Shown here: piece after piece, positions 4,900-63,163 of the stretch
Layout: the number at the start of each line of letters is the position of its first letter
How positions within the stretch are numbered: position 1 is the first letter of the stretch
The notes under the pieces: generated by a model
Database searches by the model: none
What the model was told of the DNA's origin: nothing
Seen by the model: only the letters and a program-made list of their open reading frames with translations
Translations under genes and position numbers: made by a program
Origin: Ustilaginoidea virens
Lineage: Eukaryota; Ascomycota; Sordariomycetes; Hypocreales; Clavicipitaceae
NCBI RefSeq assembly: GCF_000687475.1
Contig: NC_057316.1
Coordinates: forward strand, 62,001-126,000
Direction of reading: 5' to 3'
Length of the DNA: 64,000 bases

Positions 4900-5953
4900 A
4901 TTTTCCCTTCTACTTACTTTCTTTATCTATTTTTTTCTTAAACTCTATCGCTAATTTTAAAGTTATATAAAACTTTATTAACTTTATTAGATAAAAGGGA
5001 TACTCTTTAATTTTATACCTTTTTCTATTTCTCCTCTTTTCGGCCGATTATTAATAAATTTATATCTCGAATAAACTTATTATTGGTTATCTTTAGCTTA
5101 TTAGCCTTATCCCAATTCCACTTAATCACACTATTATGCTAAGAAAATAGTTCGAAACCGAATATCAATATAACTAGAGATATTCCAACTATAGTTATAT
5201 ATCGATTATTCAGCACTATTATAATAGAAGGAATAGCCTAATTCTACGATTCTAATAATATTCCATTCCTTTCTATAGCCTACTTCATTAATTAGTTCTT
5301 TATAAGTCTTATATTTCTTTCGGCCAATCCTATAGAAGTTAGGTATAAAACTAATCCGAAAATTACCTATATTTTATATTTTTCTCTTATAGCTTAAAAA
5401 AGTTAATTTTTAAAATAGGATCTATTATCGCAATAGATCCTTTTTAGCTATCTAAATATTAATCCCTAGTATTTTCCCTAAGCTTTTATTACCGCGATTC
5501 CTATTGCCTTAATATAAGTCTGCATTAAAAGAAATCTAATAGTATAGTTTACTACTACTAGAATATATATTTCTCCCTCTTTCGTTTTTAGTATAGTAGG
5601 GCCTAAATAGTCTATCGCAACCATCTCCTATAGTTCTAAAAGTATAATAGATTTTAAATTAGCTCCTAGAATCCTAGGTCCTATTTATTAATATACTAAA
5701 TATAACCGATAATATATCTTAATATCCCTAGTTCTTAAAGGCCAATAGAATTTCCCTCGAATAGCCTATAATATAATTACTAGACTAAAGTATCCCTTTA
5801 TATTATAAAAGGCTTATAATTTGGTCGATATCCTACCTTCTAAAATACATTTAGCTAAGGATTCATCTATTTCCAGCCAATATAACCTTTAATCGATAAA
5901 TCGGTACTTTAGCGAATATCTTTATATAAATCTTCTTCGGTCTAAAGTAATAG
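4900..5953 (-). pseudogene. Old gypsy-type integrase relic
   Basis: Read on the minus strand from 5900 downward there is an integrase order typical of Ty3/gypsy: a zinc-domain end with KFYWP (5740-5750), then AIDYLGPT (5596-5613), IYILVVV, a D-x-N region near 5425, GLAERNIRLI (5301-5330) and a C-terminal FGFELFS near 5145. Many stops interrupt it and no matching LTR was found. Reverse transcriptase should lie upstream (higher coordinates) but the relic ends abruptly at the LTR starting at 5954. Motifs are clear but the whole element is not reconstructable here. Confidence 0.6.
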
Positions 5954-43695: not shown

Positions 43696-43729
43696 TATAC
43701 AACTCTTATTAATTGTATATATTAAAATC
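43696..43729. other. 34-bp spacer between CopE and CopH
   Basis: Holds the right TATAC duplication of CopE and the left flank (GTATA) of CopH. With the left flank of CopE it would form a CAATTAAT/ATTAATTG inverted repeat before CopE inserted. Confidence 0.6.
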
Positions 43730-43909
43730 TTATAGTAGCCTACTAGGCTGCTGGCCTTATGCCCTACTGGCCTACTAACCTTCTGGCCCTTATACCGCCT
43801 CTTAGACTTATAGTAGTATTACCTTAGGCCTTTGCCTTTTACCTTAAGGATTTTCAGTGGATTATTTACTGTATATCAAGTAAGGTAGGCCTTGTTGAAA
43901 AAGGTATGG

Positions 43910-44095
43910 CATTGCTAAATTAGCGTGGTTGCCTACTAGCGTGGTGGCGGCCTACTAGCGTGGTGTGGCATTGCTAAATTAGCGTGGTGGCCTACTAGCG
44001 TGGTGGCTAGTCCACTAGTGTGGTGGTTAGTTACTAGCGTGGTGGCTAGTTACTAGTGCGGTGACTAGTTACTAGTGCGGTGGTTAGGGTGGTTG
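43910..44095 (+). repeat. 19-bp minisatellite of the CopH LTR
   Basis: Repeats of CTAGCGTGGTGGCTAGT(TA)-type units in tandem. The same array appears in both CopM LTRs (minus orientation, about 45690-45830 and 50215-50350) and in the CopH 3' LTR (63480-63655). Confidence 0.85.
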
Positions 44096-44395
44096 AAAAG
44101 GCCGGATATAGTGGGGCTGCTGACGTATCATATACGTGGCATAGTGAGCATTACGGGGAGCTATCTTACTGGCTACCCTGAATGCCTGGGCCCACCCCTC
44201 CTTCGTGTATATATAGGATAGCTTTCCCCCTTCTTTCTAGATAGTTGAAGGGTAGCACAATCGAGTCTGTTAATGCACTATATGCCTCTTAACTTCTTAC
44301 CTTCCCTGCGTTTTCTAGTTATCTTATATTTGCCTTGCCTTTACACTTGCCTTGCTTTATAGCACTTGTATAGTCTTAGGACTTGGTGAAAAATC

Positions 44396-44595
44396 TAGTA
44401 TTATACTAAGATTAGTTCACAGGTCGCAGACAGTCTTATGCCATCTAGCTAGCTAGTAAGGCTCTGCTTTTATAGTGACCTTGAGAATTGCAATATAGTA
44501 TTATACTAAGATTAGTTCACAGGTCGCAGACAGTCTCGTGCTATCTAGCTAGCTAATAAGGCTCTGCTTTTATAGTGACCTTAAGAATTACAATA
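44396..44595 (+). repeat. 100-bp perfect-length tandem duplication at the LTR end
   Basis: Copies at 44396-44495 and 44496-44595 both start TAGTATTATACTAAG and end CAATA. The second copy ends exactly at the primer site. CopM LTRs carry only one copy. Confidence 0.9.
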
Positions 44596-44610
44596 GGTTA
44601 TAAGCCCGGG
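44596..44610 (+). promoter_or_regulatory. CopH primer-binding site (initiator tRNA-Met anticodon arm)
   Basis: GGTTATAAGCCCGGG directly after the 5' LTR. It equals the CopM site GGTTATGAGCCCGGG apart from one G-to-A change. Confidence 0.75.
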
Positions 44611-44699
44611 TTTTTACTTCTTTGTTTTTACCCTACCTTTTTTGTGTTTACCCCTTAGTCTCTTTTGCTTATTAATACTACTAATATAGCTTATCCTTT

Positions 44700-45110
44700 G
44701 GTACCTTTGGCTTACCCTTATCACCTTCGGCTTACCTATTATCACCTTAGCTTACCCTTTATTACCTACGGTATTACCCTGCGGCAATCAACGGCATACC
44801 TAATAGCAACTTACGGCGTAACCTCACGGCACTTTTAGCGTAACCTTACGTTATTTTCGGCGTAACCTACGGCACCTACAGATTTTATAGTGTGATTTCT
44901 ACCACACTATACCACTGTATAACACCTTTACACCTAGTGCATGATACCTACTGCACTATACGGCACCTGTTATACTCTCCCACTTATAGCACCTTTGGTA
45001 CGGTACTTACGGCACCTTTTATATTACGGCACCTATAGCATTCACGGCACCCACGGCACCTACGGCACTTACGGCACCTTTATATTACGGCACTATATAA
45101 GCACCTAAAA
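44700..45110 (+). repeat. CopH leader micro-repeats (TACGGCACC)
   Basis: The untranslated leader repeats TACGGCACC and related ACGGCACTT/GGCGTAACC words many times, most densely at 44995-45090. The CopM leader has the same feature on the minus strand. Confidence 0.75.
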
Positions 45111-45295
45111 TACCAACGCTATAATACGGACTTACACAACGCCTTCAGCATCTGTGCCTTTATACTGAGACCTACCGCTATATTCTGCGGTTACCTTTTA
45201 TAGTAGGCTACTAGCCACTATATTTACTGGCTATCTAGCTAGTTATTCGACTATTTTGCTAGCTATTCAGCTAGTTATTCCTCTGTGTTTACAAC

Positions 45296-46030
45296 TATTG
45301 CAATTCTCAAGGTCACTATAAAAGCAGAGCCTTACTAGCTAGCTAGATAGCACAAGACTGTCTGCGACCTGTGAACTAATCTTAGTATAAATACTAGATT
45401 TTTCACCAAGTCCTAAGACTATACAAGTGCTATAAAGCAAGGCAAGTGTAAAGGCAAGGCAAATATGAGATAACCAGAAACGCAGGGAAGGTGGAAGTTA
45501 AGAGGCATGTAGTGCATTAATAGACTCGATTGTGCTACCCTTCTACTATCTAGAAAGAAGGGGAAAAGCTATCCTATATATACACGAAGGAGGGGTGGGC
45601 CCAGGCATCCAAGGTAGCCAGTAAGAAAGCTCCCCGTAATGCTCGCTTTGCCACGTATATAATACGTCAGCAGCCCCACTATATCCAGCCTTTCCAACCA
45701 CCCTAACCACCGCACTAGTAACTAGTCACCATACTAGTAACTAGCCACCACGCTAGTGACTACCCACCACACTAGTGGACTAGCCACCACACTAGTAGGC
45801 CGCCACCACACTAGTAGGCCCACCACGCTAATTTAGCAATGCCACACCTTTTTAGCAAGGCCTACCTTACTTGATATACAGTAAATAATCCACTGAAAAT
45901 CCTTAAGGTAAAAGGCAAAGGCCTAAGGTAATACTACCATAAGTCCAAGAGGCGGTATAAGGACTAGAAGGTCAGTAAGCCAGTAGGGCATTAGGCCAGC
46001 AGCCTAGTAGGCTACTATAGGATTTTAACA
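45296..46030 (-). repeat. CopM 3' LTR
   Basis: 735 bp, ends TATTGCAATTC and GATTTTAACA on the plus strand, with the 19-bp minisatellite inside. Confidence 0.95.
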
Positions 46031-46038
46031 CCCCCTCT
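46031..46038 (-). promoter_or_regulatory. CopM polypurine tract
   Basis: AGAGGGGG on the sense strand, adjoining the 3' LTR, 113 bp downstream of the stop codon. Confidence 0.85.
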
Positions 46039-46151
46039 GATTAGCTACTGTAGTAGCAAGCTAATCGTATAAAGGATAGGGAAAGAAAATGCAGTAAAAA
46101 ATGCTAAGGAAAAACATAAGAAAAACCTTAGTAAAAGTAAGTTAGTATAAG

Positions 46152-49094
46152 TTAGCAGGCCCTAAGACCTAGTAACTCGCGGAACCTAGTAAATTTAGGG
46201 CCCGGCAGTGGCTTCGTAAGACCGTCAGCAGGCATACTATTAGTAGGTAAATAGGTAATTTTAACCAAGCCCAGCTGGGCTTGCTCCCTAATATACCGGA
46301 ATTTTAATAGCGTATGCTTAGTGCGAGCGTGCTGATTAGGGTCGTTAGAATTCGAAATGGAGCCCTGGTTATCGCAATATAGCGGTATAGGGCGTAAAAT
46401 ATCAATTTCCAGCTCTTTACAAAGGTTAGAAAGCCACTGTACCTCACGGATAGTCTCAAGTAATGCATCAGATTCAGCTTCTAAAGTAGATAGCACTACT
46501 AAAGAGGCTCGCTTAGAACGCCAGCTAATAGGACCACTATTAATAGTAGTCAAGAAGCCTCCAGTGGATTTAGAGGTTTCTTTACAGCCAGCAAAGTCGC
46601 TATCAGAATAAGCGGTTATAATAGGCTGTTGATTGCTTTTAGTAGTACTAAAGCAAATAGCTAGGTTCTCAGTGCCTTTAAGGTAGCTAAAGCTGCCTTT
46701 CGCAGCATTTAGATGTACATTAGTTGCCTTGGTCATAAACCGGGAGAGGTATTGGGTAGGAAATGCTAGGTCGGGCCTAGTCATCATCATAAGCCACATT
46801 ATAGTGCCAGTAAGGCTCTGATAAAGGCTCTGATCAGTAGGGCTAAGGTCTTTTCCACTAGATTCATTTAGAATCCCTGGTTGAAGTGGAATTAGCTGAG
46901 GTTTAGTATCCTGTAGACCGAATTTAGCTAGGACCTCTGCTATAAATTGGGCTTGGTGTAGCCACAATAGACCTTTCTTCCTATTTCGTATAATCTGTAC
47001 GCCTAGAAAGAAGGAAGCCGGACCGCGGTCTTCTATAGCATAGACCTTATGAAATTTCCTTTTTAGCTGGTTGATATAAGTTATATTTGGACCAACTAAT
47101 AGGCAATCGTCAACATAGGTGACGATAAAGGTGCTGGTTTGCTTATTATAAAAGACGGCAGCATCAGAGGCTAAAGGTAAAAAACCTTCACTAGAAATCA
47201 GGTCTTTTAGCCGGTGTTGCCATTTGCGGGGTGCTTGTTTTAGCCCGTATAGGGCCTTCTTTAGCAAGATAGCTTGCTTAATAGAAGGGTTAAATCCAGC
47301 TTCTTTAAGCAAAGTTAGTAGCCGTTGGCGCTGTATATTAGACCAAAGCTTGCTATCAGTTAGTAAACTTTCCGTAAATTCAAGGAATCCATCAGGAATA
47401 TCTATATAAATAGTCTCAGAAAGTTCGCTATTTAGAAAGGCGCCTATAAAGTCTTTTGACTTAGGAAGGTAATCTACGGTGGCATTAGTATTAGTAATAT
47501 CATCCGGGGTAGCATTAGTAATGCTAGTAAAATTAGTAGGGTCCGGCATGCTTTCTAGGTCATCCGGTATAGCATTAGTGCTAGTAATGCTAGTAAGGTT
47601 AGCAGAGTTAGTAGGGTCAGGAATGCTTTCTAGGTCATCCAGTAAAATAGCAGGTTCTTTACTGCTAAATACCCCCTCTGAACCTGTATTTTGCCCTTTG
47701 TGAAAGTCTCCTTCTAGACCACTAGAAATAGGGCCTATACCTTCATTTTGGTGGATAAAGGTAATAAAGGTTGTTTTAGTAATAACCTTCTTCTTTAGAA
47801 GGTAGATAAGGTAAGTATTATTACCTAGAGTGGCAAGGAGCCTACCAGGCTCGGTACGGGGCGCTAATTTGCGGCTTTTTACACGCTTTTCGTGTGGTAT
47901 AAGCACTTCAATAGCTGCTCCAATAGCCCTAAGGTTAATAAGGTCAGGGTAGTGCTCCGGTGTTATCTGGTCGTAATCCTTTAGTAGCTCCTGATAGGGG
48001 CTAGAAGGTCTGTTAGTAACAGCTGTTATATTTACTAGCATAACAACGCCAGTAATTACAGCAGACCAGAGGTTAGATGGTAGCCTTGAACAGGCCATAG
48101 TAGCACGTAGCCTATCAGCTATAACCCTAATGGACCGCTCAGCTAGGCCGTTTTGTTCGTGAATATAGGGGCAAGATGTATTAAAAGTTATACCCTGTTC
48201 GACAAGCCAATCACTAAGCATTTTGTTGATTTCATTTCCACCATCATAGTGGAATTCAACAGGCGTTTTACCATATCTGACCTGTAGGCTCTGTATAAAG
48301 CTCTGTAATGCTTTAAAAACAACAGTGCCTTCCCTATTAGGCAGTAAGTAAAGCCAACGGAATCGGGATTTTCTATCCACTAATATAAGGGCAATAGGTC
48401 GTTTGTTGTATGGCATAGGTGATATAGCAAAAGTATCACCTTCTATAATATCCAGGCATTTAGCTGGATTAGGTATCGCATCCTTAGAAGGTTTTCTAAC
48501 CTTCTTAGCTTGAATACAAGCTAGGCAGCGAAAATCAGCATCTTTAACCTTATTAAGGTTAGGAAGACCAGGGGTATTAGCACAGGTCTTTTTAAGTAGC
48601 TGAATACCTATATGCCCTAGCCGTATATGCCAAATGCCGGCTAACTGTAATAGCTTCTGATATTCTGTATCAGCAGCTATAGGGGCAGGAGTAGGGCTAG
48701 TAGCCACTACGGGATTTTCGCTAGTCGTAATAGCGGGCTCTTCGCTAGTCGTAATAGCGGGAGAGTTGGTAGTAGGGCTAGTAGCCTCTACAGGTTCCTT
48801 ACCAGTTGCAATAGCAGAAGGTTGGATAGTAGGGCTAGTAGCCTCTATAGGGTCCTTGCTAGTCGTAATAGCAAAAGGTTGGATAGTAGGGCTAGTAGCC
48901 TCTACTAGTTCCTTGCTAATTGTAATAGTAGGAACGTTACTATTTTGCCTACTAACTAAGCCTTGTATAAGGGTAGTTAGGGTATTCATCTGGGACTTTA
49001 TATAGTCCATATCTAGCTGTAGTCGTGCAGTAAGATCAGCTTTAGAGTTGGAATCCAAAGTGGCCTTATAAGTGGAAGGCCTAGACTGTGCCAT
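46152..49094 (-). CDS. CopM polyprotein: Gag start fused to integrase, RT palm and RNase H
   Basis: 980 residues from MAQSRPSTYK. Residues 1-52 match the start of CopH Gag. Residues 53-140 are imperfect repeats of EATSPTIQPSAITTSK type. The integrase has a zinc domain (H156, H161, C190, C193) and a core with D220, D284 (FHYDGGNE) and E319 (NGLAER). At about 541-550 the chain jumps from the post-integrase linker to DFIGAFLNSELSE of RT; the palm keeps YVDD (660-663). RNase H has D831/D833, E872 and D908 and the usual end MPADGLTKPLP. Against CopH, 685 codons are absent: most of Gag, the DTGS protease, and the RT fingers with the NRPVFRIKKD segment. It cannot form particles alone and its RT is probably inactive. 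ATG at 49094 is the first in frame; TAA ends it. The frame is uninterrupted, unlike all relatives here. Confidence 0.9.
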   Translation of the reverse strand: MAQSRPSTYKATLDSNSKADLTARLQLDMDYIKSQMNTLTTLIQGLVSRQNSNVPTITISKELVEATSPTIQPFAITTSKDPIEATSPTIQPSAIATGKEPVEATSPTTNSPAITTSEEPAITTSENPVVATSPTPAPIAADTEYQKLLQLAGIWHIRLGHIGIQLLKKTCANTPGLPNLNKVKDADFRCLACIQAKKVRKPSKDAIPNPAKCLDIIEGDTFAISPMPYNKRPIALILVDRKSRFRWLYLLPNREGTVVFKALQSFIQSLQVRYGKTPVEFHYDGGNEINKMLSDWLVEQGITFNTSCPYIHEQNGLAERSIRVIADRLRATMACSRLPSNLWSAVITGVVMLVNITAVTNRPSSPYQELLKDYDQITPEHYPDLINLRAIGAAIEVLIPHEKRVKSRKLAPRTEPGRLLATLGNNTYLIYLLKKKVITKTTFITFIHQNEGIGPISSGLEGDFHKGQNTGSEGVFSSKEPAILLDDLESIPDPTNSANLTSITSTNAIPDDLESMPDPTNFTSITNATPDDITNTNATVDYLPKSKDFIGAFLNSELSETIYIDIPDGFLEFTESLLTDSKLWSNIQRQRLLTLLKEAGFNPSIKQAILLKKALYGLKQAPRKWQHRLKDLISSEGFLPLASDAAVFYNKQTSTFIVTYVDDCLLVGPNITYINQLKRKFHKVYAIEDRGPASFFLGVQIIRNRKKGLLWLHQAQFIAEVLAKFGLQDTKPQLIPLQPGILNESSGKDLSPTDQSLYQSLTGTIMWLMMMTRPDLAFPTQYLSRFMTKATNVHLNAAKGSFSYLKGTENLAICFSTTKSNQQPIITAYSDSDFAGCKETSKSTGGFLTTINSGPISWRSKRASLVVLSTLEAESDALLETIREVQWLSNLCKELEIDILRPIPLYCDNQGSISNSNDPNQHARTKHTLLKFRYIREQAQLGLVKITYLPTNSMPADGLTKPLPGPKFTRFRELLGLRAC

Positions 49095-49804
49095 TATAGT
49101 GGTTAAAAGTCGTTAAAAATGGTGCCAATAGCTGTAGGAACAGATGAATAACCAGCTAAATAGCTGGCAAAATGGTCGAGTAACTAGCTGGACAGCTAGT
49201 AAATATAGTGGCTAGTAGCCTACTATAAAAGGTAACCGCAGAATATAGCGGTAGGTCTCAGTATAAATGCACAGATGCCGTAGGCGTTGTGCAAGTCCAG
49301 AATATAGCGTTAGTATATAAGGTGCTTATGTGGTGCCGTAATATAAAGGTGCCGTAAGTGCCGTAGGTGCTGTAGGTGCCGTAGGTGCCGTAGGTGCTAT
49401 AGGTGCCGTAATATAAAAGGTGCCGTAAGTGCCGTACCAAAAGTGCTATAAGTGGAAGAGTATAACAGGTGCCGTATAGTGCAGTAGGTGTCGTGCACTA
49501 GGTGTAAAGATGTTATACAGTGGTATAGTGTGATAGATATCACACTATAAAATCCGTAGGTGCCGTAGGTTACTCCGAAAATAACGTAAGGTTACGCTAA
49601 AAATGCCGTGAGGTTACGCCGTAAGTTGCCGTAGGGGTACGCCGTTGATTGCCGCAGGGTAATGCCGTAGGTAACAAAGGGTAAGCCAAAGGTGATAAGG
49701 GTAAGCCAAGGATACCAAAGGATAGCTATATTAGTAGTACTAATAAGCAAGAGAGACCAAGGGGTGAACACAAAAGAGGTAGGGTAAAAACAAAGAAGTA
49801 AAAA
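49095..49804 (-). promoter_or_regulatory. CopM leader with GGTGCCGTA micro-repeats
   Basis: The 710-bp untranslated leader carries dense GGTGCCGTA/AGTGCCGTA repeats on the plus strand at 49330-49440 (TACGGCACC in sense orientation) and further copies to 49640. It may hold packaging or translation signals; this is inference. Confidence 0.6.
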
Positions 49805-49819
49805 CCCGGGCTCATAACC
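49805..49819 (-). promoter_or_regulatory. CopM primer-binding site
   Basis: Sense GGTTATGAGCCCGGG immediately after the 5' LTR, complementary to the anticodon arm of initiator tRNA-Met. Confidence 0.8.
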
Positions 49820-50554
49820 TATTGCAATTCTCAAGGTCACTATAAAAGCAGAGCCTTACTAGCTAGCTAGATAGCACAAGACTGTCTGCGACCTGTGAAC
49901 TAATCTTAGTATAAATACTAGATTTTTCACCAAGTCCTAAGACTATACAAGTGCTATAAAGCAAGGCAAGTGTAAAGGCAAGGCAAATATGAGATAACCA
50001 GAAACGCAGGGAAGGTGGAAGTTAAGAGGCATGTAGTGCATTAACAGACTCGATTGTGCTACCCTTCTACTATCTAGAAAGAAGGGGAAAAGCTATCCTA
50101 TATATACACGAAGGAGGGGTGGGCCCAGGCATCCAAGGTAGCCAGTAAGAAAGCTCCCCGTAATGCTCGCTTTGCCACGTATATAATACGTCAGCAGCCC
50201 CACTATATCCAGCCTTTCCAACCACCCTAACCACCGCACTAGTAACTAGTCACCACACTAGTAACTAGCCACCACGCTAGTGACTACCCACCACACTAGT
50301 GGACTAGCCACCACACTAGTAGGCCGCCACCACACTAGTAGGCCCACCACGCTAATTTAGCAATGCCACACCTTTTTAGCAAGGCCTACCTTACTTGATA
50401 TACAGTAAATAATCCACTGAAAATCCTTAAGGTAAAAGGCAAAGGCCTAAGGTAATACTACCATAAGTCCAAGAGGCGGTATAAGGACTAGAAGGTCAGT
50501 AAGCCAGTAGGGCATTAGGCCAGCAGCCTAGTAGGCTACTATAGGATTTTAACA
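49820..50554 (-). repeat. CopM 5' LTR with TATA-like promoter
   Basis: 735 bp. Sense GTATATATAGG (plus 50098-50110) is a likely TATA box for element transcription toward lower coordinates. Confidence 0.93.
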
Positions 50555-50605
50555 ACAACTATCGGCACCATTTTTCAACGGATTTTTAAACCTTTTTTGC
50601 CCATA

Positions 50606-53600
50606 ATAGCAGAATCAGGGTCTTCTACCTATAAGGTCCCTAAATCCGATACTAAAGCTAATACTAATACACAACTACAGCTGGATATGGACGATATGAA
50701 GTCCCAGATGAATATACTAACTAACCTTATATAAGGCCTAGTTAGTAGGCAAAATAACGACACCCAGGCTACCTAGGCTACTAATAAGAAGCCTACTAAA
50801 GCCACTGAAGCTAGACCTTCTACTAGGATGACTACCACTAAAGATAATAATGATAGTAAAGCTAACGTTATAGAAATCGACCAACCTTCTACCCCTGTAA
50901 AATATAAGGGTAAAGAACCTATTTATACCACAACAGCACCAATAACAACTATTACCAACCAAATTAGTGATGGGGCTATTAAGGAATTAGCTAAGACTGC
51001 CAACCGCTTTAAAGAGTCTCAAAAGCTAAAAAGTCCCTATAATTTCGACCAGTAGAAGCAGGCCCTTACAATACAACTTAGGGCCTTTAAAATAGCTAAC
51101 TTTATTAATAACCCATCTATAGCAAGGCACTTTAATGAGTCTGAGTAGGCACTTCTACTACTAATGCTAAAAAATAGCTGTAGTGAAGAAGCTGTAGAGG
51201 CTATAGACTGGTGTAATGACCCAGAGGAAGCCTACCTTTTGCTAGTAGCCTAGTACTACTACTTACTAGAAGTATAGCGGGCACACTTATACCCTACCTT
51301 TTACACCCTTACATTTACCGGTTATAAAGGCACTTTAGAGGCTTTTAATGGCGAATTTAACAGCTATATTTCTCGCCTCAGAATCTTAGGTTCTAAGATC
51401 GACTCTTTCGACCAAGTTAACCAGTATCTTTAGGCTATAAAGGGGGTATTTACCCGCTGGACGGAACGCTAACGCTCTATAATTAGGGCTTATAGCGCCT
51501 AGGGTGTTATTAACAGCAGCAAATTTAACTTCTAGTATTTTATAGTTAATCTACTAGAAGAACAGCGTTCTAAAGGGTCTAATAAGGTAGCTACTAATAA
51601 TAACCCTAAGCAGCTCAAGGCTTCCAAAGACTCTAAGAATAAAGGGTCTACTAATACCGCTTCTACTAATAATAGCAAGAATAACTCTACTAAAAAGAAG
51701 CAGCAACAGAAGAAGAAATAGGACTCTAATAATAATAGCAAACAGCAAGATATCAAGTCCTTTATTATAGGCAATTATAATACCTAGGATACTAATATAT
51801 TCTATTCCTCTTCTTCTTCCACTATATCCACTGATATAAGCTATAGTGCTAAATCAGGCGGTAGGACCCCTAAGGATGCCCTCCTTTACGATACAGGCTC
51901 CACTTGTCATATTGTTAATAATAAGAAGCATTTTACTACTTTTCACCACTTTGAGAAGGATGATAAGCCTATAATTACTACTGGTGGTAGCCCTATTTGC
52001 CCTACTGGTTGGGGCACAGCACGATTTACTATAATACAGGGCGTTAATCCCACCAAATGGGGTATTATAGAGCTCAAGAATGCTCTATATATTCCTGCCT
52101 TGGATATTAATATTATTAGCGGTGTAAAGCACTATGCCGCTAAAGGGGTACTAATTAAAAATCAGCTTTGGTCAGCAAGCCGTAAATGCATCGGCATTTT
52201 TAACTTTAAAAAATACGGCTTTTTTCTTCTATAGAAAGGAGTAGACACACCACTACTACATCAGCCTTGCAGCCATTATACTGTTACTAATAGTATAATA
52301 GTAGAGGTCCCTAGCCCTACTAACCCTACTGATTATAGTGATCCTTAAGATACCACTATTACCCCTGTTTCTACTAACCAGCCCGCTATTACAACTAGCG
52401 ATATTCCTGCTATTACGACTAGTAAAGAACCTGTAGAGGCTACTAGTCCTACTACTAACTCTCCCGCTATCACGACTAGCGAAAATCCCGTAATGGCTAC
52501 TAGCCCTACTCCTGCCCCTATAGCTGCTGATACAGAATATCAGAAGCTATTACAATTAGCCGGCATTTAGCATATACGGCTAGGGCATATAGGTATTCAG
52601 CTACTTAAAAAGACCTGTGCTAATACCCCTGGTCTACCTAACCTTAATAAGGTTAAAGATGCTGATTTTCGCTGCCTAGCCTGTATACAGGCTAAGAAGG
52701 TTAGAAGACCTTCTAAAGATGCGATACCTAATCCAGCTAAATGCCTGGATATTATAGAAGGTGATACTTTTGCTATATCACCCACACCATACAATAAACG
52801 ACCTGTTGCCCTTATATTAGTGGACAGAAAATCCCGATTCCGTTGGCTTTACTTACTGCCTAATAGGGAAGACACTATTGTTTTCAAAGCATTACAGAGC
52901 TTTATACAAAGCCTACAGGTCAGATATAGTAAAACGCCTATTGAATTCCACTATGATGGTGGAAATGAAATCAACAAAATGCTTAGTGATTGGCTTATTA
53001 AACAGGGTATAGCTTTTAATACCTCTTGCCCCTATATTCATAAATAAAACAGCCTAGCTAAGCGTTCCATTAGGGTTATAGCTGATAGGCTATGTGCTAC
53101 TATGGCCTGGTCAAGGCTACCATCTAACCTCTAGTCTACTGTAATTACTGGCGTTGTTATGCTAGTAAATATAACAGCTATTACTAACAGACCTTTTAGC
53201 CCTTATTAGGAGCTACTAAAGGATTACAACCAAATAACACCAGAACACTACCCTAACCTTATTAACCTTAGGGCTATTAGAGCAGCTATTGAGGTGCTTA
53301 TACTATACGAAAAGCGTATAAAAAGCCGCAAATTAGCGCCCTATACCGAGCCTGGTAGACTCCTTGCCACTCTAGGTAATAATACCTACCTAGTCTACCT
53401 TCTAAAGAAGAAGGTTATTACTAAAATAACCTTTATCACCTTTATCCACTAAAATAAAGGTATAGGCCCTATTTCTAGTGGCTTAGAAGGAGACTTTCAC
53501 AGAGGGCAAAATACAGATTCAGAGGGGGTATCTAGCAGAGAACCTGCTATTTTACTGGATGACCTGGAAAGCATCCCTGACCCTACTAACCTTACTAATA

Positions 53601-55206
53601 TTAATAATACTAATGTTATTCTGGATAACCTAAAAAGCGTCCCGGACCCTACTAATCTTACTAGTGTTACTAATACTAATGCTACTATAGATTACCGTAC
53701 TATACTATAGTCCCCGGCTACTGTAAAGGATAACCTTATAGATATCCTTACTAGCCTTACTCCTGCCGACCTTGCTGGCCCTATTGGCCCTGCTGGCCCT
53801 GCTGGCCCTACTATACCTACTAGCCCTACCGACCCTACTAGCCCTACCGACTTATTCCCTTAGAAAGGCAATACCTTATACCACCTGATATGGGATTCCT
53901 ACTATGCAGCTAAGCGTAAGCTAGCTAAAAAGGCCCCTAATAGTACGCCTAATAGCTGGAAGGATGTGCTATAATGCCCTGAAAAAGAAAAAGACCTTTA
54001 GATAAAGGCACTATTTAAGGAATTTAAGCAGCTTTTAGATACTAAAGTCTTCCAATTTATTCCTAAGTCTAGCGTTCCTATTAATAGGAAAATTATACGC
54101 AATAGGCCTGTTTTTCGGATTAAAAAGGATGCTAATAATCAGCCTATAAAATATAAGGCTAGATTAGTAGTAAAAGGCTTTATATAAGTCGAAGGAAAGG
54201 ATTTTCAGCATACTTATGCTTCCACCTCTATCCCACCCACCTGGAGGGTTATACTGGCTTTGGCAGCTAGTAATAACTGGGAAATAGAGCAAATCGACTT
54301 TATAAGTGCCTTCCTAAATAGCGAACTTTCTGAGACTATTTATATAGATATTCCTGATAGATTCCTTGAATTTACAGAAAGTCTATAAACTAATAGCGAT
54401 AGCAAGCTTTAGTCTGATATTTAACGATAACGGCTACTAACTTTACTTAAAGAAGCCGGCTTTAATCCCTCTATTAAGCAAGCTATTTTACTAAAGAAGG
54501 CCCTATACAGGCTAAAATAAGCACCCCGCGAATAGCAACACCGGCTAAAAGACCTGATTTCTAGTGAAGGTTTTTTACCTTTAGCTTCTAATGCTGCCGT
54601 CTTTTATAATAAGTAAACCAGCACCTTTATTGTTACTTATATTGACGATTGCCTATTAATTGGTCCAAATATAACTTATATTAACCAGCTAAAAAGGAAA
54701 TTTCATAAGGTCTATACTATAGAAGACCGCGGTTTGGCTTCCTTTTTCCTAGGCGTACAAATTATACGAAATAGGAAGGAAGGTTTATTATGGCTATACC
54801 AAGCCCAATTTATAGCAGAGGTCTTAGCTAAATTCGGCTTACAGGATACTAAACCTCAGCTTATTCCACTTTAACCAGGGATTCTAAATAAATCTAGTAG
54901 AAAAGACCTTAGCCCTACTGATTAGAGCCTTTATTAGAGCCTTACTGGCACTATAATATGGCTTATGATGATGACTAGACCCGACCTAGCATTTCCTACT
55001 CAATACCTCTCTCGGTTTATATCCAAGGCAACTAATATGCATCTAAATGCTGCAAAAGGCAGCTTTAGCTACCTTAAAGGCACTAAGAACCTAGCTATTT
55101 GCTTTAGTACTACTAAAAGCAACTAATAGCCTATTATAACCGCTTATTCTGATAGCGATTTTGCTGGCTGTAAAGAAACCTCTAAATCTACTAGAGGCTT
55201 CCTTAC
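50606..55206 (+). pseudogene. CopH gag-pol relic, main part
   Basis: Frame 2. The start codon reads ATA at 50606 where CopM has ATG. Gag runs to about 51780 with SDGAIKELAKTANRFKE and LLEEQRSKGSNK, then an N/S/K-rich tail without a zinc knuckle. The protease YDTGSTCHI is at 51887-51913. The integrase starts near 52565 (its tryptophan is a TAG) with HIRLGH, and NGLAER-like sequence lies near 53050. RT includes NRPVFRIKKDANNQP (near 54100), YIDD at 54638-54649 and RNase H YSDSDFAGC. At least 20 TAG/TAA codons interrupt it. It ends at the Cop2 insertion. Removing Cop2 and one TSD makes 50606-63163 exactly 1,666 codons. Confidence 0.9.
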
Positions 55207-55921
55207 TGTTGCAAAATGGTGATTCAGAACACTGTTGGAAATGTACTGGATACCGACAGTGGCGTACAAGGCGTTGCAGAATAAAACAAGGAGCTGGTTA
55301 AAGATTTAAAGCGCACAAGAGGTTGACCAGAGCAAAGATGTCAGGGAAATCTGATTCTAATTGTTGGTGACTATTCTAGCTAGAAAGAGGGAATTTTAGG
55401 CATATTTCTACCATCTTAAAAAAGTGGTTGAAAATAATGAAAAACCGCAAAAATAGCGAAAAACCCGACGAAAAGTCGGTCTGCCTAACCGTGCCCAGTC
55501 TGTGCCCAATATCCTACCCAGTGCATACCCAACCAAGCCCAGTGGCTTGTAGCGGTGTGCCGGATGCCCTATAATAGCCTGCCGTACAGGCCGGAAGCCC
55601 TATATCGGTCTGCCGTAAATGACCGGTGTAGCGGGTGACTGTATGTAGAAGGCCGAAAGTGCTGGTTTGCCCATTTGGTAATCCCGTAGAAATGCGCCGC
55701 CTGTTGTGGGCCCTGTGGCCCGCTGTGACCGGCCGCTGTGGCCGGCTGTGGGGCGCTGTGCCGGTGCCGTGACCGGCGCTGTGGCCCACTGTAATCGGCG
55801 TTGTGGGGCGCTATGCCCCACCATAGCGCCTGGTATAGCCACCGCGATATCTCAACGCAGAAACGTCGTATAGTGGCGAGACCAGTACCAAAATACAGCT
55901 AAAAAGGCGCTGATTTCAACA
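55207..55921 (-). repeat. Cop2 3' LTR
   Basis: 715 bp from TGTTGCAAAATGG to TTTCAACA. The polypurine tract AGAGGGGG (minus) adjoins at 55922-55929. Confidence 0.93.
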
Positions 55922-55996
55922 CCCCCTCTGATTAGCAATATAGCTAATCCTAGCGTTAGAATAAAAGAAAGAAGTCCCGTAAAAAAGAAGAAAAAA

Positions 55997-58900
55997 TTAT
56001 AGGGATTGCAGCCCTAATAATTGCCGAAATATAGGGAATTTCGGGCTTAGGAGTGGTTTGGTAAGTCCATCCGCAGGCATATCTATCGTGGGTAAATAAG
56101 ATATTTTTACCAGGCTACCATAGGCCTTCTCACGTATATACCGGAATTTAAGCAAGGTATGCTTAGTGCGGGCATGCTGATTTGGGTCATTTGCATTAGA
56201 AATAGACCCTTGGTTATCGCAGTATAGTGGTATCAGGCGTTAAATATCGACCTGGATTTCTTTAAATAAATTAGATATCCACTCCACTTCGCGAATTGCC
56301 TTAAGTATTGCATCAGACTCGGCTTTAAGCGTTAATAAAACCATAGTTGAAGACCGTTTTGACCTCTAGCTAATAGGCCCACCATTCAAGGTAGTAAGAT
56401 AACCACTAGTGGACTTCAAAGTCAGCCGGCACCTAGCAAAATCGCTATCAGAAAATACAGCTAATACTACGGTAGCTTTAGCGGCTCGGTAACAAATGGC
56501 TGTATTTGCCGTACCAGCTAAGTAGCAAAAAGCGCCCTTAGCAGCATTAAGCTGTGTAGTGGAAGCCTGTTGCATATATCGTGACAGGTATTGCGTTAGA
56601 AAGGCAAGGTTAGGTCTTAACATCATCATCAACCACATCGATGTCCCTACTAGCTGCTGGAATAAGTATTGATTACTAGCATCCAGCGGCATATCGTCAG
56701 CCTCAGCAAGTATACCGGGCTATAGTGGGATTAGATGCGGTCGTGCGTCCTTAAGGTTAAACTTCTCAAGGACTTCCGCAATAAATTGCGATTAATGCAG
56801 CCATAATAGGCCCTTTTCTCTATCCCTAATAATCTATACTCCTAGAAAGAAGGAGGCAGGTCCTCGGTCTTCTATAGCATAAACCTTATAGAATTTAGCC
56901 TTAAGCTGGTTAATATAGCTAAGGTCCGGACCGATAATCAAGCAGTCATCTATATAGGTTATAATAAAGGTATGCGTTCCTTTATTATAGAAGACGGCAG
57001 CATTAGAAAGTAACGGCTTAAAACCCTCTTATACTAAAAGGTCTTTTAACCGTAACTGCCACTCGCGAGGGCCTTATTTAAGCCCATACAAGGCTTTCTT
57101 TAATAGTATGACCTGTGATGCAGAGGGGTTATATCTAACCTTAGTAAGTAAGGCTAGAAGTCGACGATACTGCTGGTCAGACCATAAGGCTGGGTTAGGT
57201 GAGAGTAGGCTTTCTGCAAATTCTAGAAAACCAGCTGGAATCTCTATATAAATCGTCTCCAGTAGTTCACTATTTAGAAAGGCACTAATAAAGTCGATCT
57301 GCTCTATTTCCCAGTTATTTGCAGCAGTAAGAGCAAGGATAATCCTCCATATTGGTGGGATCGAAGTAGAGGCATAGGTCTCCGTAAAGTCTTGCCTAGA
57401 TACCTGCATAAAGCCTTTGACAACTAATCGTGCCTTATATTTAACCGGGTTATTATTCGCATCTTTCTTAACGCGAAAAACAGGCCGGTTACGCAATATT
57501 TTCCTACTAGTAGGAATACTAGTCTTAGGAATAAATTGGAAGACATTTAAATCGATTAATTACTCGAATTCCGAAAATAAGGCTTTTACCTAGCTATCCT
57601 TATGTGGGCTGTATAAGACTTCCTTCCAGCTATTAGGCACACCTTCTGGGGCCCGTTTTGCAGCCTTAATCTTTACTGCATAGCAAATATCGTACATTTG
57701 CTGGTAAAAAGCATAGGAAGGGGGGAAATCCTATGTGGGAGCCTCTAGGGGGCTGCCTAGGTATCCGAAAATCTGGTCGTTTTTCGGCTGGGTGGGTAGG
57801 AAAGTACCCCATTGGTTAGTCTATAGGTCAAACTATTGGTCAGACTATTGGTCAGTCTGTAGGTTAGACTGTTGGTTAGTCTGTAGGTCAAGTGACCTAT
57901 AGTATCCGTAGCTTAAGATACCTTGCACGTCTCGTATTTGTAGCTGCATTCTTCCTCTAATTTTACCCCTAGTAGCCCTAACCTGGTATGGCTAAATAGG
58001 CACCTTTTCTAATACTCAAAACATTTTCTCCTACGGTCTCTCATTTAAGGCGATATTTAGACTCTCGAATTTCAGATATTCTAATATAGGTAGCGTTTTA
58101 CTATAGCGAAATGCTGCATTTACTAGGAAGCCGGGCGAAAAGGCAGAATCTATTGTATCGGAAAGTCGCAGAAAATTAGTGTGTGTGGGGCTTTAAGATT
58201 CGGACCATTGAAAATTTGCTATATGGGGCGAGTTAGAATTTTCATATGTGCGGGGTATGCCCACTTTTGTGATGGATTTAGAAAATCTCGGTGGTTGAAA
58301 TTCCTGGTGACGAGAGCTTTCTGTATTTCCTAGTATTTGCAGCCTTTTTATATGGGAAAAGGCTGTATTTTCCTTAGCCGGTGAAAGCGGACCGTCTTGC
58401 CTAAGCTGAAAAGCTGAGTTAGGCTAAAGCGATTTAGAATCGAAAGATAGCGAATTGCTGAGAAATGTTGCAGAGTGCTGTGGCGGGCCAATTGGTAGGC
58501 CCACTGGTTGTGGCAGGCCCATTGGTTGTGGTAGGCCTGCTGATTGTAGTGGATCCGTATGCTGTATTAGGCCTATTGGTTGTAGTAGGCCTATGAGCTG
58601 TATTGGATCCGTAGCCTGTGGTAGGCCTGTGCCTTCGACTAGGCCTATACCGTCAGTCTTAGACGAAATAGGTATATTTAGGCGAGGCGACTTCTAAATA
58701 GGCTCTTCTAGAGCAATTTAGTCGATATTTACCCCCTCTAAATTAGAAGGCGGTTAGAAATCAAAAGTGCCTTCTAGGCCACTTGAAATAGGGCCTATAC
58801 CTTTATTTTAGTAGGTAAAGGTAATGAAAGAGGTCTTAGTGACGACCCGGCGATATAGGATGTAGACGAGGTAGGTACTATTACCTAGCGTAGCTAGTAA

Positions 58901-61765
58901 CCTACCTGACTCGGTCTAGGGGGCTAGCTTGTGGCTAATGACCCGTTTTTCTGGAGGGATTAGCACCTCTACAGCCGCACTAATAGCCCTGAAGCTAGTA
59001 AGGTCGGGTAGGTGGTAGTATGTAATTTCCAGAAAGTCCTTCTTTAATTCCTCGAAAGGTAATGAGGAACGGTTTAAGACTGCTATTAGATTTACTAAGG
59101 TAGTAATACTAAGAATTACTATAGACTAAAGGTAAGAAGGTAACCGAGACTAAAGTATAGTAGCTCTAAGTCGGTTAACGATAACCCATATAGAGCGTTC
59201 TACTAACCTATTTTGCTTATAAATATAAAGGGAAGAGGTTAAAAAATCTATACCCTTGAGAACTAGCCAGGCTGTGATGACGTCATTGATTTCCTTACTA
59301 CTATTATAGTGGAATTTAATAGCTAATTTGCTATAGCGATTCTAAAGACCTTAGAAGAACCCCTATAATACTAGGAATACCGTGGGTCCTTCTTTATTGG
59401 GTAGTAAATGCACCCAATGGAAGCGTGATTTCCGGTCAACTAAGATAAGGCAAATGGGGCGTTTATTGTATGGTAGAGGGTTAATTTAGAAGATATCGCC
59501 CTCTATAATATCTAAACAATGCATAGGGTCTGGTATAGCCCCTGATGTAAAACGCCGAACTGACTTTGCCCTTTTATAGGCGATATAGTTGAAATCAGAA
59601 TCCTTTACCTTATTAAGATCAGGTAACCCTGTGGTTGATGTATAGGTTTTCTTTAAAAGTTGGATTCCAATGTGCCCAAGCCGGATATACTAAAGTCTGG
59701 CTAATAATAGCAGCTTTTGATATTCTGTATCAGCAGCTGGTATTAGGGTAGGGTTGAGGGCGACCGGGGCCCTCTATGGTGGTTGGGCTGTATTAGGAAT
59801 AGCAGCCTCTATTGGTACTACCGAAAAACCAGGACTAATTAGTAGGTCAGCTAGTAGGATTTCTTACGAATTAGCTGGTAGAAGTGGAAGGTCTGAGTCA
59901 GCTGGTGGGGTAGGTAAATCCTTTAGTAGGGGATATTCCTCGTATTCTTCCGGGTTGGCTAGGGCAGGTAATTCGACCGAGATACTGTATGAAGCCGGTT
60001 GGCTGGTATGGTATAAAAACGGCGAATCTACCCCTTTTTATTATAAAAAGAAGCCATACTTCTTAAAATTAAAAAGCCTAATGCACTTATTGTTGCTATT
60101 AACTAGGCTTTAGCCCTAAATACTGCCACGATTCAGATAATGTTTAATGCCGCTAAAGATATTAATATCAAAAGCTGGTATGAAGAGGGCGTTAGTTAGC
60201 TCTAAGGTGCCCCACTGAGGTGGGTTAGTGCCCTATAGCACGGTAAAACGCGCTATGCCCCACCCACTGGGCTTGATTGGGCCACTACCTGTGCTGATGA
60301 CTGGTCTGTTTCCGGTATAGTATTAGAAGTAGGTGAAATGCTTTTTATCGTTAATAATATGCACTATAGAACTAGTATCGTAGAGTAAAGAATCTATTAG
60401 CGTTTTCCCACCGGATTGTGCACTATAGCTAGTAGCTAGAAATTGCATATATTTGCGGTCCTAGAAGGAAGAATAGGCTGTCTCATAGGGTGTAAGACTT
60501 AGAGTGTTATAATTCTTTAGTACGAAGGAATCAATAGTCTTTTCCTTTTCATCGGTCTTTTATAGGGTATCTGCTTTATTAGCTGAATCTTTCTTTTCTT
60601 TATTCTTCTTTTTATTTTCCGGCTTACCTTATGTGGCTAAAGAAGACCCTTGTTGGGTAGAAGAAGACCCCTGTTTCTTTTTATTGGCGTTAGTGGTAGT
60701 GTTTTTACCACCCTTGCTAGTGTTGTTACTAGCTAGCTTGCTACTATTGTTAGTAGCGGCACCCTTAACCTTTGCGAGGTAGGTGGTAGCCCTTACTACT
60801 GATGATCCTTTAATGCGTTGTTCTTCTAGTAAATCAACCATATAAAATTGCAGGTTAATATTTGATATATTTCCCTGAGTATAGGCGATTCTCATCATTA
60901 TGCGGTACCATTCTGCCCACTAAAAAAAGACCCCTTCTACAGCATATAAATACTAGCTGATTTAGTCGAAAGGTTATATATGGGAGCCTAAAATTTGCAG
61001 CCTAGATAGGTAGCTATTAAAGGAGGCGTTAAAAGATTCTAAGGTACCCTTATAGCCTATAAAATTTAGTTGATGGAAGGCAGGGTATAGGTGGGTCCGC
61101 TATACATCTGATGAGTGAGAATACTATTTGGTGAGTAACGTAAAGGCTGACTCTGGGTTAGTACACTAGTTGATAGCGGCAGCTGGTCCTTCTGTGCAAC
61201 TATTTTTGATAAATAATAGTAAAAGTGCTTGCTCTGAATCGTTGAACTTGCTAGTAATAGAAGGTTCTTCGATAAATTTGGCGATATTAAGTGCCCTAAG
61301 TTGAATCATAAGGGCCTGTTTCCATTGGTCGAAGTTAGATGCCCCCCTTAGCTTTTGGGATTCCTAGAATCCGTTGGCTGTCTTGGCTAGTTCTTTGATA
61401 GCTATAGCGCTGATTTGGCTGCTAATGCTGGATGGAACCGGCAGGGGTTGCTGGGCTTTGGGTGGTAATAGTGGGTTATTTCCTTTACCTATAGGGGTTT
61501 GGAAGGTATCCACATCCATTATATCCTGGGATGGTGGGCTAGTAGCAGGCTTGATTAGTCTGTCTACTAAGGTGCCTACCTTATTAGCCAAAAAATCGAT
61601 TTTAGAATTAATTCGATTAAATTTATAGTTAAATTCTTTTCTTATTTCCTGTTGGTCTTCTCTAAGCTGGGCAATTTCCTAGTCATTATTAGATTCTTCT
61701 ACCTCTGCCGTATTAGGGACTTAGTAGCCTAGGTTATTAGCGGTAGGAACGTTCTAACTGGCCAT
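55997..61765 (-). pseudogene. Cop2 gag-pol polyprotein relic
   Basis: Exactly 1,923 codons from ATG 61765 to TAA 55997, as in Cop1. A stop stands at codon 4 (MAS, then TAG where Cop1 has CAG). Longer open pieces survive: Gag MANKVGTLVDRLIKPA (61591 down) and its basic tail (60898-60629), RT NRPVFRVKKDANNNP to LLKKALYGLK (57496-57074), and RNase H (56692-56366). The protease reads DTSS as in Cop1. The RT box reads YIDD near 56955. Stops differ in part from those of Cop1, so both copies were hit separately. Confidence 0.9.
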
Positions 61766-62032
61766 TATAGGAAGAGAAAAGGTGCCGGAAAGTCTTAAAA
61801 ATGCGAAGAAAATTAAGACTGAAAATCTAGATAAAACTAGAAGAAAGCTGCATTAAGGAATAACCTTAGAAAATCCTATTGCAAGGATATGTTGCAGCTT
61901 GGTGTGGTAGCTGGGTTCCTAAATCTGGGATGATCAGTCCCTTGTTAGTAGATTTCTAGAAGGTTAGCTGCCAAATGCGTTAAAATCCTAAGTTAGCGTA
62001 AAAAAAAGTCTTAAGCTGGAAGCCTTAAGACA

Positions 62033-62046
62033 CCGGGCTCATAACC
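62033..62046 (-). promoter_or_regulatory. Cop2 primer-binding site
   Basis: GGTTATGAGCCCGG on the sense strand, identical to Cop1. Confidence 0.75.
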
Positions 62047-62761
62047 TGTTGCAAAATGGTGATTCAGAACACTATTGGAAATGTACTGGATACCGACAGT
62101 GGCGTATAAGGCGTTGCAGAATAAAACAAGGAGCTGGTTAAAGATTTAAAGCGCATAAGAGGTTGACCAGAGCAAAGATATCAGGGAAATCTAATTCTAA
62201 TTGTTAGTGATTATTCTAGCTAGAAAGAGGGAATTTTAGGCATATTTCTACCATCTTGAAAAAGTAGTTGAAAATAATGAAAAACCGCAAAAATAGCGAA
62301 AAACCCGACGAAAAGTCGGTCTGCCCAACCGTGCCCAGTCTGTGCCCAATATCCTACCCAGTGCATACCCAACCAAGCCCAGTGGCTTATAGCGGTGTGC
62401 CGGATGCCCTATAACAGCCTGCCGTACAGGCCGGAAGCCCTATATCGGTCTGCCGTAAATGACCGGTGTAGCGGGTGACTGTATGTAGAAGGCCGAAAGT
62501 GCTGGTTTGCCCATTTGGTAATCCCGTAGAAATGCGCCGCCTGTTGTGGGCCCTGTGGCCCGCTGTGACCGGCCGCTGTGGCCGGCTATGGGGCGCTGTG
62601 CCGGTGCCGTGACCGGCGCTGTGGCCCACTGTAATCGGCGTTGTGGGGCGCTGTGCCCCACCATAGCGCCTGGTATAGCCACCGCGATATCTCAACGCAG
62701 AAACGTCGTATGGTGGCGAGACCAGTACCAAAATACAGCTAAAAAGGCGCTGATTTCAACA
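62047..62761 (-). repeat. Cop2 5' LTR
   Basis: 715 bp, gap-free against the other three LTRs of the family. Confidence 0.93.
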
Positions 62762-63163
62762 CTTACTACTATTAATAGTGGTCCTATTAGCTGGCGTTCT
62801 AAGCGAGCCTCTTTAGTAGTGCTATCTACTTTAGAAGCTGAATCAGATATATTACTTGAGACTATCCGTAAGGTATAGTGGCTTTCTAACCTTTATAAAC
62901 AGCTGGAAATTGATATTTTGCGCCCTATACCGCTATACTGCGATAATCAGGGCTCCATCTCAAATTCTAATGACCCTAATCAGTATGCTCGCACTAAGCA
63001 TACTCTATTAAAATTCCAGTATATTAGAGAGCAAGCCCAGCTAGGCTTAGTTAAAATAACCTACTTATCTATTAATAGTATGCCTGCTGACGGTCTTACT
63101 AAGCCACTGCCAGGCCCTAAATTTACTAGGTTCCGCGAGTTACTAGGCCTTAGGGCCTACTAA
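62762..63163 (+). pseudogene. CopH gag-pol relic, C-terminal RNase H end
   Basis: Resumes after Cop2 with TTINSGPISWRSKRA, VLSTLEAES, LYCDNQGS, ARTKHTLLKF and MPADGLTKPLPGPKF, ending LLGLRAY with TAA at 63161-63163. Few stops remain here (a TAG near 62876). The match to the CopM C-terminus is near-identical. Confidence 0.9.

What the first reader, a model, noticed from the sequence alone, without database searches (positions are those of the whole stretch)
45296..50554. Recently mobile copia element that has lost Gag, protease and the RT fingers but keeps one 980-codon frame
CopM differs from its full-length relative CopH by 685 missing codons in at least two blocks, both phase-preserving. 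Integrase, the RT palm with YVDD and RNase H stay in frame. The LTRs are almost identical and the TSD is exact, so the deleted form itself transposed. A gagless integrase-bearing copia derivative with a long open frame is unusual; most non-autonomous LTR elements have no coding capacity. It may be a parasite of intact CopH-like helpers, or its integrase-RNase H protein may interfere with them.
Basis: partly seen in the sequence, partly recalled or inferred. Interest (0 to 1): 0.75.

Follow-up and report, generated by a model that had tools for sequence, protein, structure and literature searches.

The report
Gag-less copia parasite family in fungus
A jumping element in a plant-infecting fungus lost its shell-protein gene and part of its copying enzyme yet spread to several chromosome sites, most likely by borrowing proteins from intact relatives still present in the same genome.

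Summary
CopM (45296-50554, minus strand) is a complete copia-type LTR element: 735-bp LTRs with 2 differences, exact 5-bp target duplication, primer site, polypurine tract and an open 980-codon frame lacking Gag (bar 52 N-terminal codons), protease and RT fingers. It is not a single copy: nine copies share both junctions, and the seven read in full each have their own 5-bp duplication. The genome's size statistics match Ustilaginoidea virens UV-8b. CopM belongs to a deletion series: the RT-finger junction occurs at 52 places, the Gag junction at 119. A sister class keeps protease but lacks the integrase core; 11 copies have its 1037-codon frame, five without stops. Another gag-less element keeps all of pol in an intact 1449-codon frame. 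Intact full-length relatives exist, three nearly identical. Mosaics, including a Gag-plus element with the RT-finger deletion, indicate exchange with full-length elements. Best reading: trans-mobilised parasites, working like barley BARE2 and mouse IAP IΔ1. Stops in other copies are RIP-type. I found no sign of selection on CopM's protein; interference is untested. A new variant of a known kind.

The parts
45291..45295 (.). target-site duplication ACAAC, left copy
45296..46030 (-). 3' LTR (735 bp)
46031..46038 (-). polypurine tract AGAGGGGG next to the 3' LTR
   Evidence: PPT role recalled
46152..49094 (-). single 980-codon open frame
46155..46616 (-). RNase H part (YSDSDFAG...ESDA...YCDN), approximate limits
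   Evidence: motifs recalled; no Pfam hit; same region in full-length relative L029
46881..47453 (-). RT palm part from DFIGAFLN to after YVDD (codons 548-738)
   Evidence: Pfam RVT_2 profile 111-243 at residues 606-738; alignment
47451..47456 (-). J2, junction of the RT-finger deletion (codon 547|548)
   Evidence: pattern at 52 places
47748..47951 (-). SH3-like domain of integrase
48165..48449 (-). integrase core (rve)
48504..48635 (-). gag_pre-integrase zinc-finger region
48714..48938 (-). 57-bp (19-codon) repeat linker that stands where Gag and protease are in relatives, approximate limits
48939..49094 (-). retained Gag N-terminus, 52 codons, MAQSRPST type; J1 at its end
49805..49819 (-). 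primer-binding site GGTTATGAGCCCGGG (initiator-Met half-tRNA type as in copia)
   Evidence: sequence; tRNA match recalled
49820..50554 (-). 5' LTR (735 bp)
50555..50559 (.). target-site duplication ACAAC, right copy
43722..45295 (+). older full-length relative into whose leader CopM inserted: LTR and leader
50560..55207 (+). the same host element, internal part (Gag to RT)
   Evidence: joined flanks match full-length relatives across the site

Best explanation
CopM is one class of a non-autonomous, in-frame deletion family of copia-type retrotransposons in U. virens. Its RNA keeps the cis parts (LTRs, primer site, leader plus 52 Gag codons, polypurine tract). It is most likely packaged, reverse-transcribed and integrated by proteins of intact full-length relatives. 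Shown: copies with own TSDs, shared junctions, intact full-length relatives, mosaics between deleted and full-length elements. Inferred: trans-supply of Gag and RT, co-packaging, and template switching as the source of the mosaics. After insertion, copies are inactivated by RIP-type mutation; CopM still has an open frame because it is recent.
For: Nine of 40 scored candidates span the J1-J2 segment. Seven of seven fully read have distinct 5-bp TSDs, a PBS (altered at one or two bases in L009 and L013) and a PPT. The empty site is shown by joined flanks. Sister class: 11 copies with the same 1037-codon frame length, 5 without stops; L035 has identical LTRs and TSD aatat. Candidate helpers L029-L031: 7215 bp, 0-1 LTR differences, own TSDs, intact frames; L028 also intact. 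All four combinations of the Gag and RT-finger deletions exist. L015 is an L034-like Gag-plus backbone with a patch of about 500 bases around J2 that matches deleted elements better; L035 is 98.8-100% like L029 over 4251-5000. CopM lacks Gag and RT fingers, needed for particles and polymerisation (established retroelement biology).
Against: No RNA, particle or protein data. Mosaics could also come from gene conversion between genomic copies. Whether present helpers mobilised these particular copies is not shown; over its first 500 bases WIN's LTR is closest to the gag-less L020, not to an intact helper. Residual activity of the truncated RT is judged from missing motifs, not tested.
Confidence: 0.82

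Rival explanations
1. The long frame itself helps its own RNA in cis (RNA stability, escape from nonsense-mediated decay, translation-coupled packaging, or a fusion protein with a cis role as reported for IAP IΔ1), so only in-frame deletions amplify.
For: 43 of 45 paired J1-J2 spacings are multiples of three; 17 of 19 distinct spacings; after collapsing spacings that differ by 57-bp repeats, 8 of 10 classes (P 0.003), 7 of 9 without the window's class (P 0.008). Very different domain sets (IN without PR; PR without IN core; all of pol) sit in one open frame. IAP IΔ1 precedent.
Against: Repeat units in the linkers are multiples of three by origin, so classes are not fully independent. No purifying selection is visible: integrase-part changes among CopM copies fit the neutral expectation. 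The N-terminal 52 codons differ from L029 by 17 N: 6 S.
Confidence: 0.35
2. The open frame is a passive leftover: the deletions are young, repeats change in steps of three, and CopM is open only because RIP has not yet hit it.
For: Of the eight other class members seven were scored and each carries stops (the copy at C5:3396802 is not in that output). In the two aligned segments all 24 stop-making differences among seven copies are C>T or G>A in CpA/TpG context. LTR differences: 124 of 130 transitions, 78 of 124 in RIP context, P 1e-19.
Against: It does not explain why several separate deletions keep frame. Five stop-free copies of the sister class may simply be young.
Confidence: 0.45
3. The truncated protein acts on helpers: it supplies integrase or interferes with them.
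For: The D, D, E residues of the integrase and YVDD remain (sequence; motifs recalled).
Against: The sister class without the integrase core has 11 copies. CopM integrase carries a W335C change shared by all seven copies read and shows no constraint. No functional data.
Confidence: 0.08
4. Assembly artefact or post-insertion deletion of a full-length copy.
For: None found.
Against: Nine copies with the same junctions at different places on six contigs; distinct TSDs in all seven read.
Confidence: 0.01

Closest known systems
BARE2 of barley (parasite of BARE1; Ty1/copia)
   Same: copia-type element that cannot make Gag and whose RNA is packaged in particles of an intact relative (passages of PMC3735527 incl. 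its abstract). L036 is the closest match here: gag-less with PR-IN-RT-RH in one frame.
   Different: CopM also lacks protease and RT fingers, is a fusion of a Gag N-terminus to pol, and lies in a fungus with RIP-type mutation. Packaging is not shown here.
IAP IΔ1 of mouse
   Same: internal deletion of gag and pol giving a fusion ORF; non-autonomous; responsible for most new IAP insertions; fusion protein reported to act in cis (passage of review PMC6466679; the primary paper was not held).
   Different: an endogenous retrovirus with one main deletion; here several deletions, shuffled between backbones.
RLG_Cereba/RLG_Quinta and RLC_Angela autonomous/non-autonomous pairs of wheat
   Same: non-autonomous partners share LTR ends and primer site with an autonomous partner; sequence exchange between lineages is ascribed to template switching or gene conversion (passages of PMC11302176, PMC9744471).
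   Different: Quinta keeps Gag and lacks RT and IN; CopM does the reverse.

Membership tests
Ty1/copia LTR retrotransposon | order PR-IN-RT with copia-type Pfam domains in full-length relatives | tested here: met
   Pfam order PF22936, PF13976, PF00665, PF25597, PF07727 in L029 and L026; only RVT_2 and Pol_BBD exceed Pfam's cut-offs
Ty1/copia LTR retrotransposon | two LTRs, PBS, PPT and 5-bp TSD | tested here: met
   LTR ends are TGTT...AATA, not the usual TG...CA (usual form recalled)
gag-less copia parasite (BARE2-like) | cannot make Gag but keeps cis signals and copies by transposition | tested here: met
   Gag region absent in the seven class copies read, and J1-J2 segment present in nine; TSDs in 7 of 7 read. 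Gag has no Pfam hit in L029 and is assigned by position
gag-less copia parasite (BARE2-like) | RNA packaged into particles of an intact partner | not testable with these tools
   needs VLP RNA
gag-less copia parasite (BARE2-like) | intact partner with compatible cis signals in the same genome | tested here: met
   L028-L031 intact frames and like LTRs; compatibility inferred from sequence only
in-frame gag-pol fusion element (IAP IΔ1-like) | deletion leaves one continuous fusion ORF | tested here: met
   980-codon ORF; 1037-codon frame in L035
in-frame gag-pol fusion element (IAP IΔ1-like) | fusion protein increases mobility in cis | not testable with these tools
   no functional assay
TRIM / LARD | no coding capacity (definition recalled) | tested here: not met
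   980-codon frame with integrase and RT-palm homology

The most novel reading that the evidence does not exclude
A gag-less lineage has persisted beside its helpers as a swarm of in-frame deletion alleles. Deletion junctions (Gag, protease, RT fingers, integrase core) are passed between backbones by template switching in shared particles, and only alleles that keep one continuous frame amplify because that frame acts in cis for its own RNA.
Probability: 0.25. Interest if true: 0.7.

Novelty: new variant of a known kind. Interest (0 to 1): 0.47.

Why it matters
It gives a small, well assembled genome in which intact elements and a graded series of their deletion derivatives can be read side by side: intact, gag-less, gag-less plus RT-finger-less, and gag-less plus RT-finger-less plus integrase-core-less. 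That makes two questions testable: which parts of a copia element must stay in cis, and whether an open frame is needed for parasites to spread. RIP marks older copies, so recent ones stand out. It also points to a copia family that a published repeat table of this strain appears to have left largely unclassified.

Tried and rejected
Single-copy or artefact reading: rejected. Selection on the CopM frame: tested on fixed and segregating differences. Fixed RT/RNase H differences between the two CopM sublineages are mostly synonymous (17 of 20), but all lie at or 3' of element position 3624 and 16 of 20 derived alleles also occur in other elements, so I read them as donor sequence brought in by recombination, not as selection on CopM. 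Lineage changes in the integrase part are 5 N: 3 S for CopM against 5 N: 5 S for the intact L029-L031 branch, so that comparison shows no difference. A Fisher test of integrase N:S between WIN and L012 (22:5) against two full-length pairs was set aside as support for relaxed selection, because most of those changes are RIP-type mutations after insertion. Splicing as the cause of the shared junctions: considered; the junctions carry filler and repeat sequence and no intron ends were seen by eye; not tested further. Search for the same RT deletion outside this genome: of 64 protein hits, 42 could be scored by script for the stretch between integrase and RT palm and 22 could not; 36 of the 42 have extra residues there compared with CopM and 6 come out negative, through large gaps between partial matches; none was checked by hand, so absence elsewhere is not shown. 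Literature: searches returned no paper with all terms; in searches I saw titles and abstract starts only and none named such a family. This is not proof that it is unpublished.

Full report
WHAT IS THERE. CopM lies on the minus strand at 45296-50554. Its LTRs are 735 bp with two differences, both transitions in RIP context. The TSD ACAAC is exact, and PBS and PPT are present. One frame of 980 codons runs at 46152-49094. It begins with 52 codons of a Gag N-terminus, continues through a 57-bp repeat linker, then the zinc-finger, core and SH3 parts of integrase, then an RT that starts at the DFIGAFLN motif and runs through YVDD, then RNase H (RNase H by recalled motifs). Against the intact relative L029 the frame lacks Gag, the protease-region domain and two blocks of the RT fingers, with a short island (YLPKS, like FIPKS in L029) between them. 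Gag itself has no Pfam hit in L029 and is assigned by position.

WHERE IT SITS. CopM inserted, in opposite orientation, into the leader of an older full-length relative (43722-45295 and 50560-55207). Joining the flanks with one TSD copy gives 600 bases; all 12 matches listed (list cut at 12) run across the join. That host element is interrupted again at about 55208-62764 by an element of a second copia family, about 66-69% alike in DNA.

THE GENOME. The genome has 37,158,136 bases in 8 contigs and contig C3 has 6,429,791 bases. Table 1 of PMC13233505 gives total length 37158136, 8 scaffolds and N50 6429791 for Ustilaginoidea virens UV-8b (passages seen). A host gene in the window has Conoideocrella (69%) and Claviceps (67%) as nearest named relatives (family Clavicipitaceae recalled). 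I take the window to be U. virens UV-8b.

COPIES OF COPM. A search with the J1-J2 segment gave 40 scored candidates; nine cover 1492 or more of its 1521 bases in one stretch, on contigs C1, C2, C3, C4, C5 and C7; the tenth (L015) covers 1378. Seven were read in full (the window copy and L009-L014); all seven have their own 5-bp TSD (gttgt, catac, tctat, ataat, atagc, tataa, ctatt; element sense), a PBS (altered in L009 and L013) and a PPT. The other two were not read. Of the eight other copies, seven were scored against the CopM protein and each carries stops; the one at C5:3396802 is not in that output.

A DELETION SERIES. The RT-finger junction (31-base pattern, up to 3 mismatches) occurs at 52 places, 43 exact; the pattern read backwards gives 0. 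The Gag-junction pattern occurs at 119 places (100 listed), an intact-RT pattern at 239, a Gag-core pattern at 149, controls 0; these are places, not proven whole elements. Among elements read, all four combinations exist: Gag+RT+ (L023-L031, L033, L034), Gag-RT+ (L020, L022, L036), Gag+RT- (L015) and Gag-RT- (CopM class, L016-L019, L035). L035 represents a class with the protease region but without the integrase core: 5386 bp, TSD aatat, identical LTRs, intact 1037-codon frame. Eleven copies have that frame length, five without stops, three of them (L035 included) with the same top score at 100% identity. L036 lacks Gag but has an intact 1449-codon frame with PR, IN, RT and RH; its LTRs were not fetched. 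Fifteen of 15 gag-less elements share the MAQSRPST-type N-terminus and 12 of 12 Gag+ elements the MAES/IAES type, which fits one origin of the Gag loss in a lineage that has stayed separate there.

CANDIDATE HELPERS. Of 32 scored full-length matches, six have no stop in the matched stretch, one being the query itself. L029, L030 and L031 are 7215 bp, with 0, 1 and 0 LTR differences, own TSDs and intact frames; L028 is intact too.

RECOMBINATION. L015 is 97.6% or more like L034 in 22 of 27 windows of 250 bases; it departs at 501-1250 and around the RT junction (4501-5000), where it is closer to the deleted elements. L035 is 98.8-100% like L029 over 4251-5000. WIN's LTR matches L020 at 100% over its first 500 bases, while over 2001-2500 WIN matches L029 best of the elements outside its class. 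The two CopM sublineages differ in the RT/RNase H part by 20 fixed sites, all at or 3' of element position 3624; in 16 of them the derived allele also occurs in other elements. Sequence is therefore exchanged between deleted and full-length elements. Template switching in a shared particle would explain this and would mean co-packaging; gene conversion cannot be excluded.

RIP. Over 26 LTR pairs there are 130 differences, 124 of them transitions, 78 in CpA/TpG context (24% expected, P 1e-19). Two pairs do not fit: L017 (0 of 9 in that context) and L011 (4 of 12, with 3 transversions). In the two aligned segments all 24 stop-making differences among seven CopM copies are of RIP type.

DOES THE FRAME MATTER? 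Among 45 paired elements, 43 J1-J2 spacings are multiples of three. Dropped before the count: six J2 places without a listed J1 partner (the J1 list is cut at 100 of 119) and one wrong pairing. Collapsed by 57-bp repeat number, 8 of 10 classes are in frame (P 0.003; 7 of 9 without the window's class, P 0.008). The two exceptions are C3:516457 and L019, which carries foreign sequence. This is suggestive, but repeat units are multiples of three by origin. Against a role for the protein: in the integrase part, RIP-type differences among CopM copies are 50 amino-acid-changing or stop to 11 synonymous, close to the 4:1 neutral expectation; changes fixed on the CopM lineage there are 5 N: 3 S (including W335C), against 5 N: 5 S on the intact L029-L031 branch, too few to tell apart; and the sister class lost the integrase core.

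HOW IT MOST LIKELY WORKS. CopM RNA keeps what is needed in cis and uses Gag and RT (and perhaps integrase) from intact relatives. This works like BARE2, which cannot make Gag and is found in BARE1 particles (abstract and passages of PMC3735527), and by structure like IAP IΔ1, a non-autonomous gag-pol deletion with a fusion ORF, responsible for most new IAP insertions (passage of PMC6466679). Steps shown: insertion, amplification, intact relatives, exchange. Steps inferred: trans-supply and packaging.

VERDICT. The kind is known; the graded, shuffled in-frame deletion series in a fungus with RIP-type mutation is the new part. The published repeat table for this strain gives Ty1/copia 170 copies and 0.05% of the genome; the 19 elements alone add up to about 116 kb, 0.3%, so this family was probably left unclassified there.

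Noticed in passing
window 55208-62764 and 15025-20406 (-): A second copia family, about 66-69% identical in DNA to the CopM relatives; one copy interrupts the host element of CopM.
   Followed up: no
L036 76-4425: Gag-less element with an intact 1449-codon PR-IN-RT-RH frame, the closest BARE2 analogue seen here; its LTRs were not read.
   Followed up: partly
L019 (C6:1750084 region): Deleted-class element with foreign sequence between linker repeats, possibly a nested DNA transposon or captured host DNA.
   Followed up: no
L023/L024 (C1:7093200-7110500): Two full-length relatives in a head-to-tail array sharing an LTR, both with the same roughly 560-bp internal insertion; reading frames before and after it differ.
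   Followed up: no
PMC13233505 Table 5: Published repeat table gives Ty1/copia as 0.05% of UV-8b; 19 elements of this one family alone are about 0.3%.
   Followed up: partly
L017, L011: LTR pairs whose differences do not fit RIP context: L017 9 transitions, none in CpA/TpG; L011 4 of 12, with 3 transversions.
   Followed up: no
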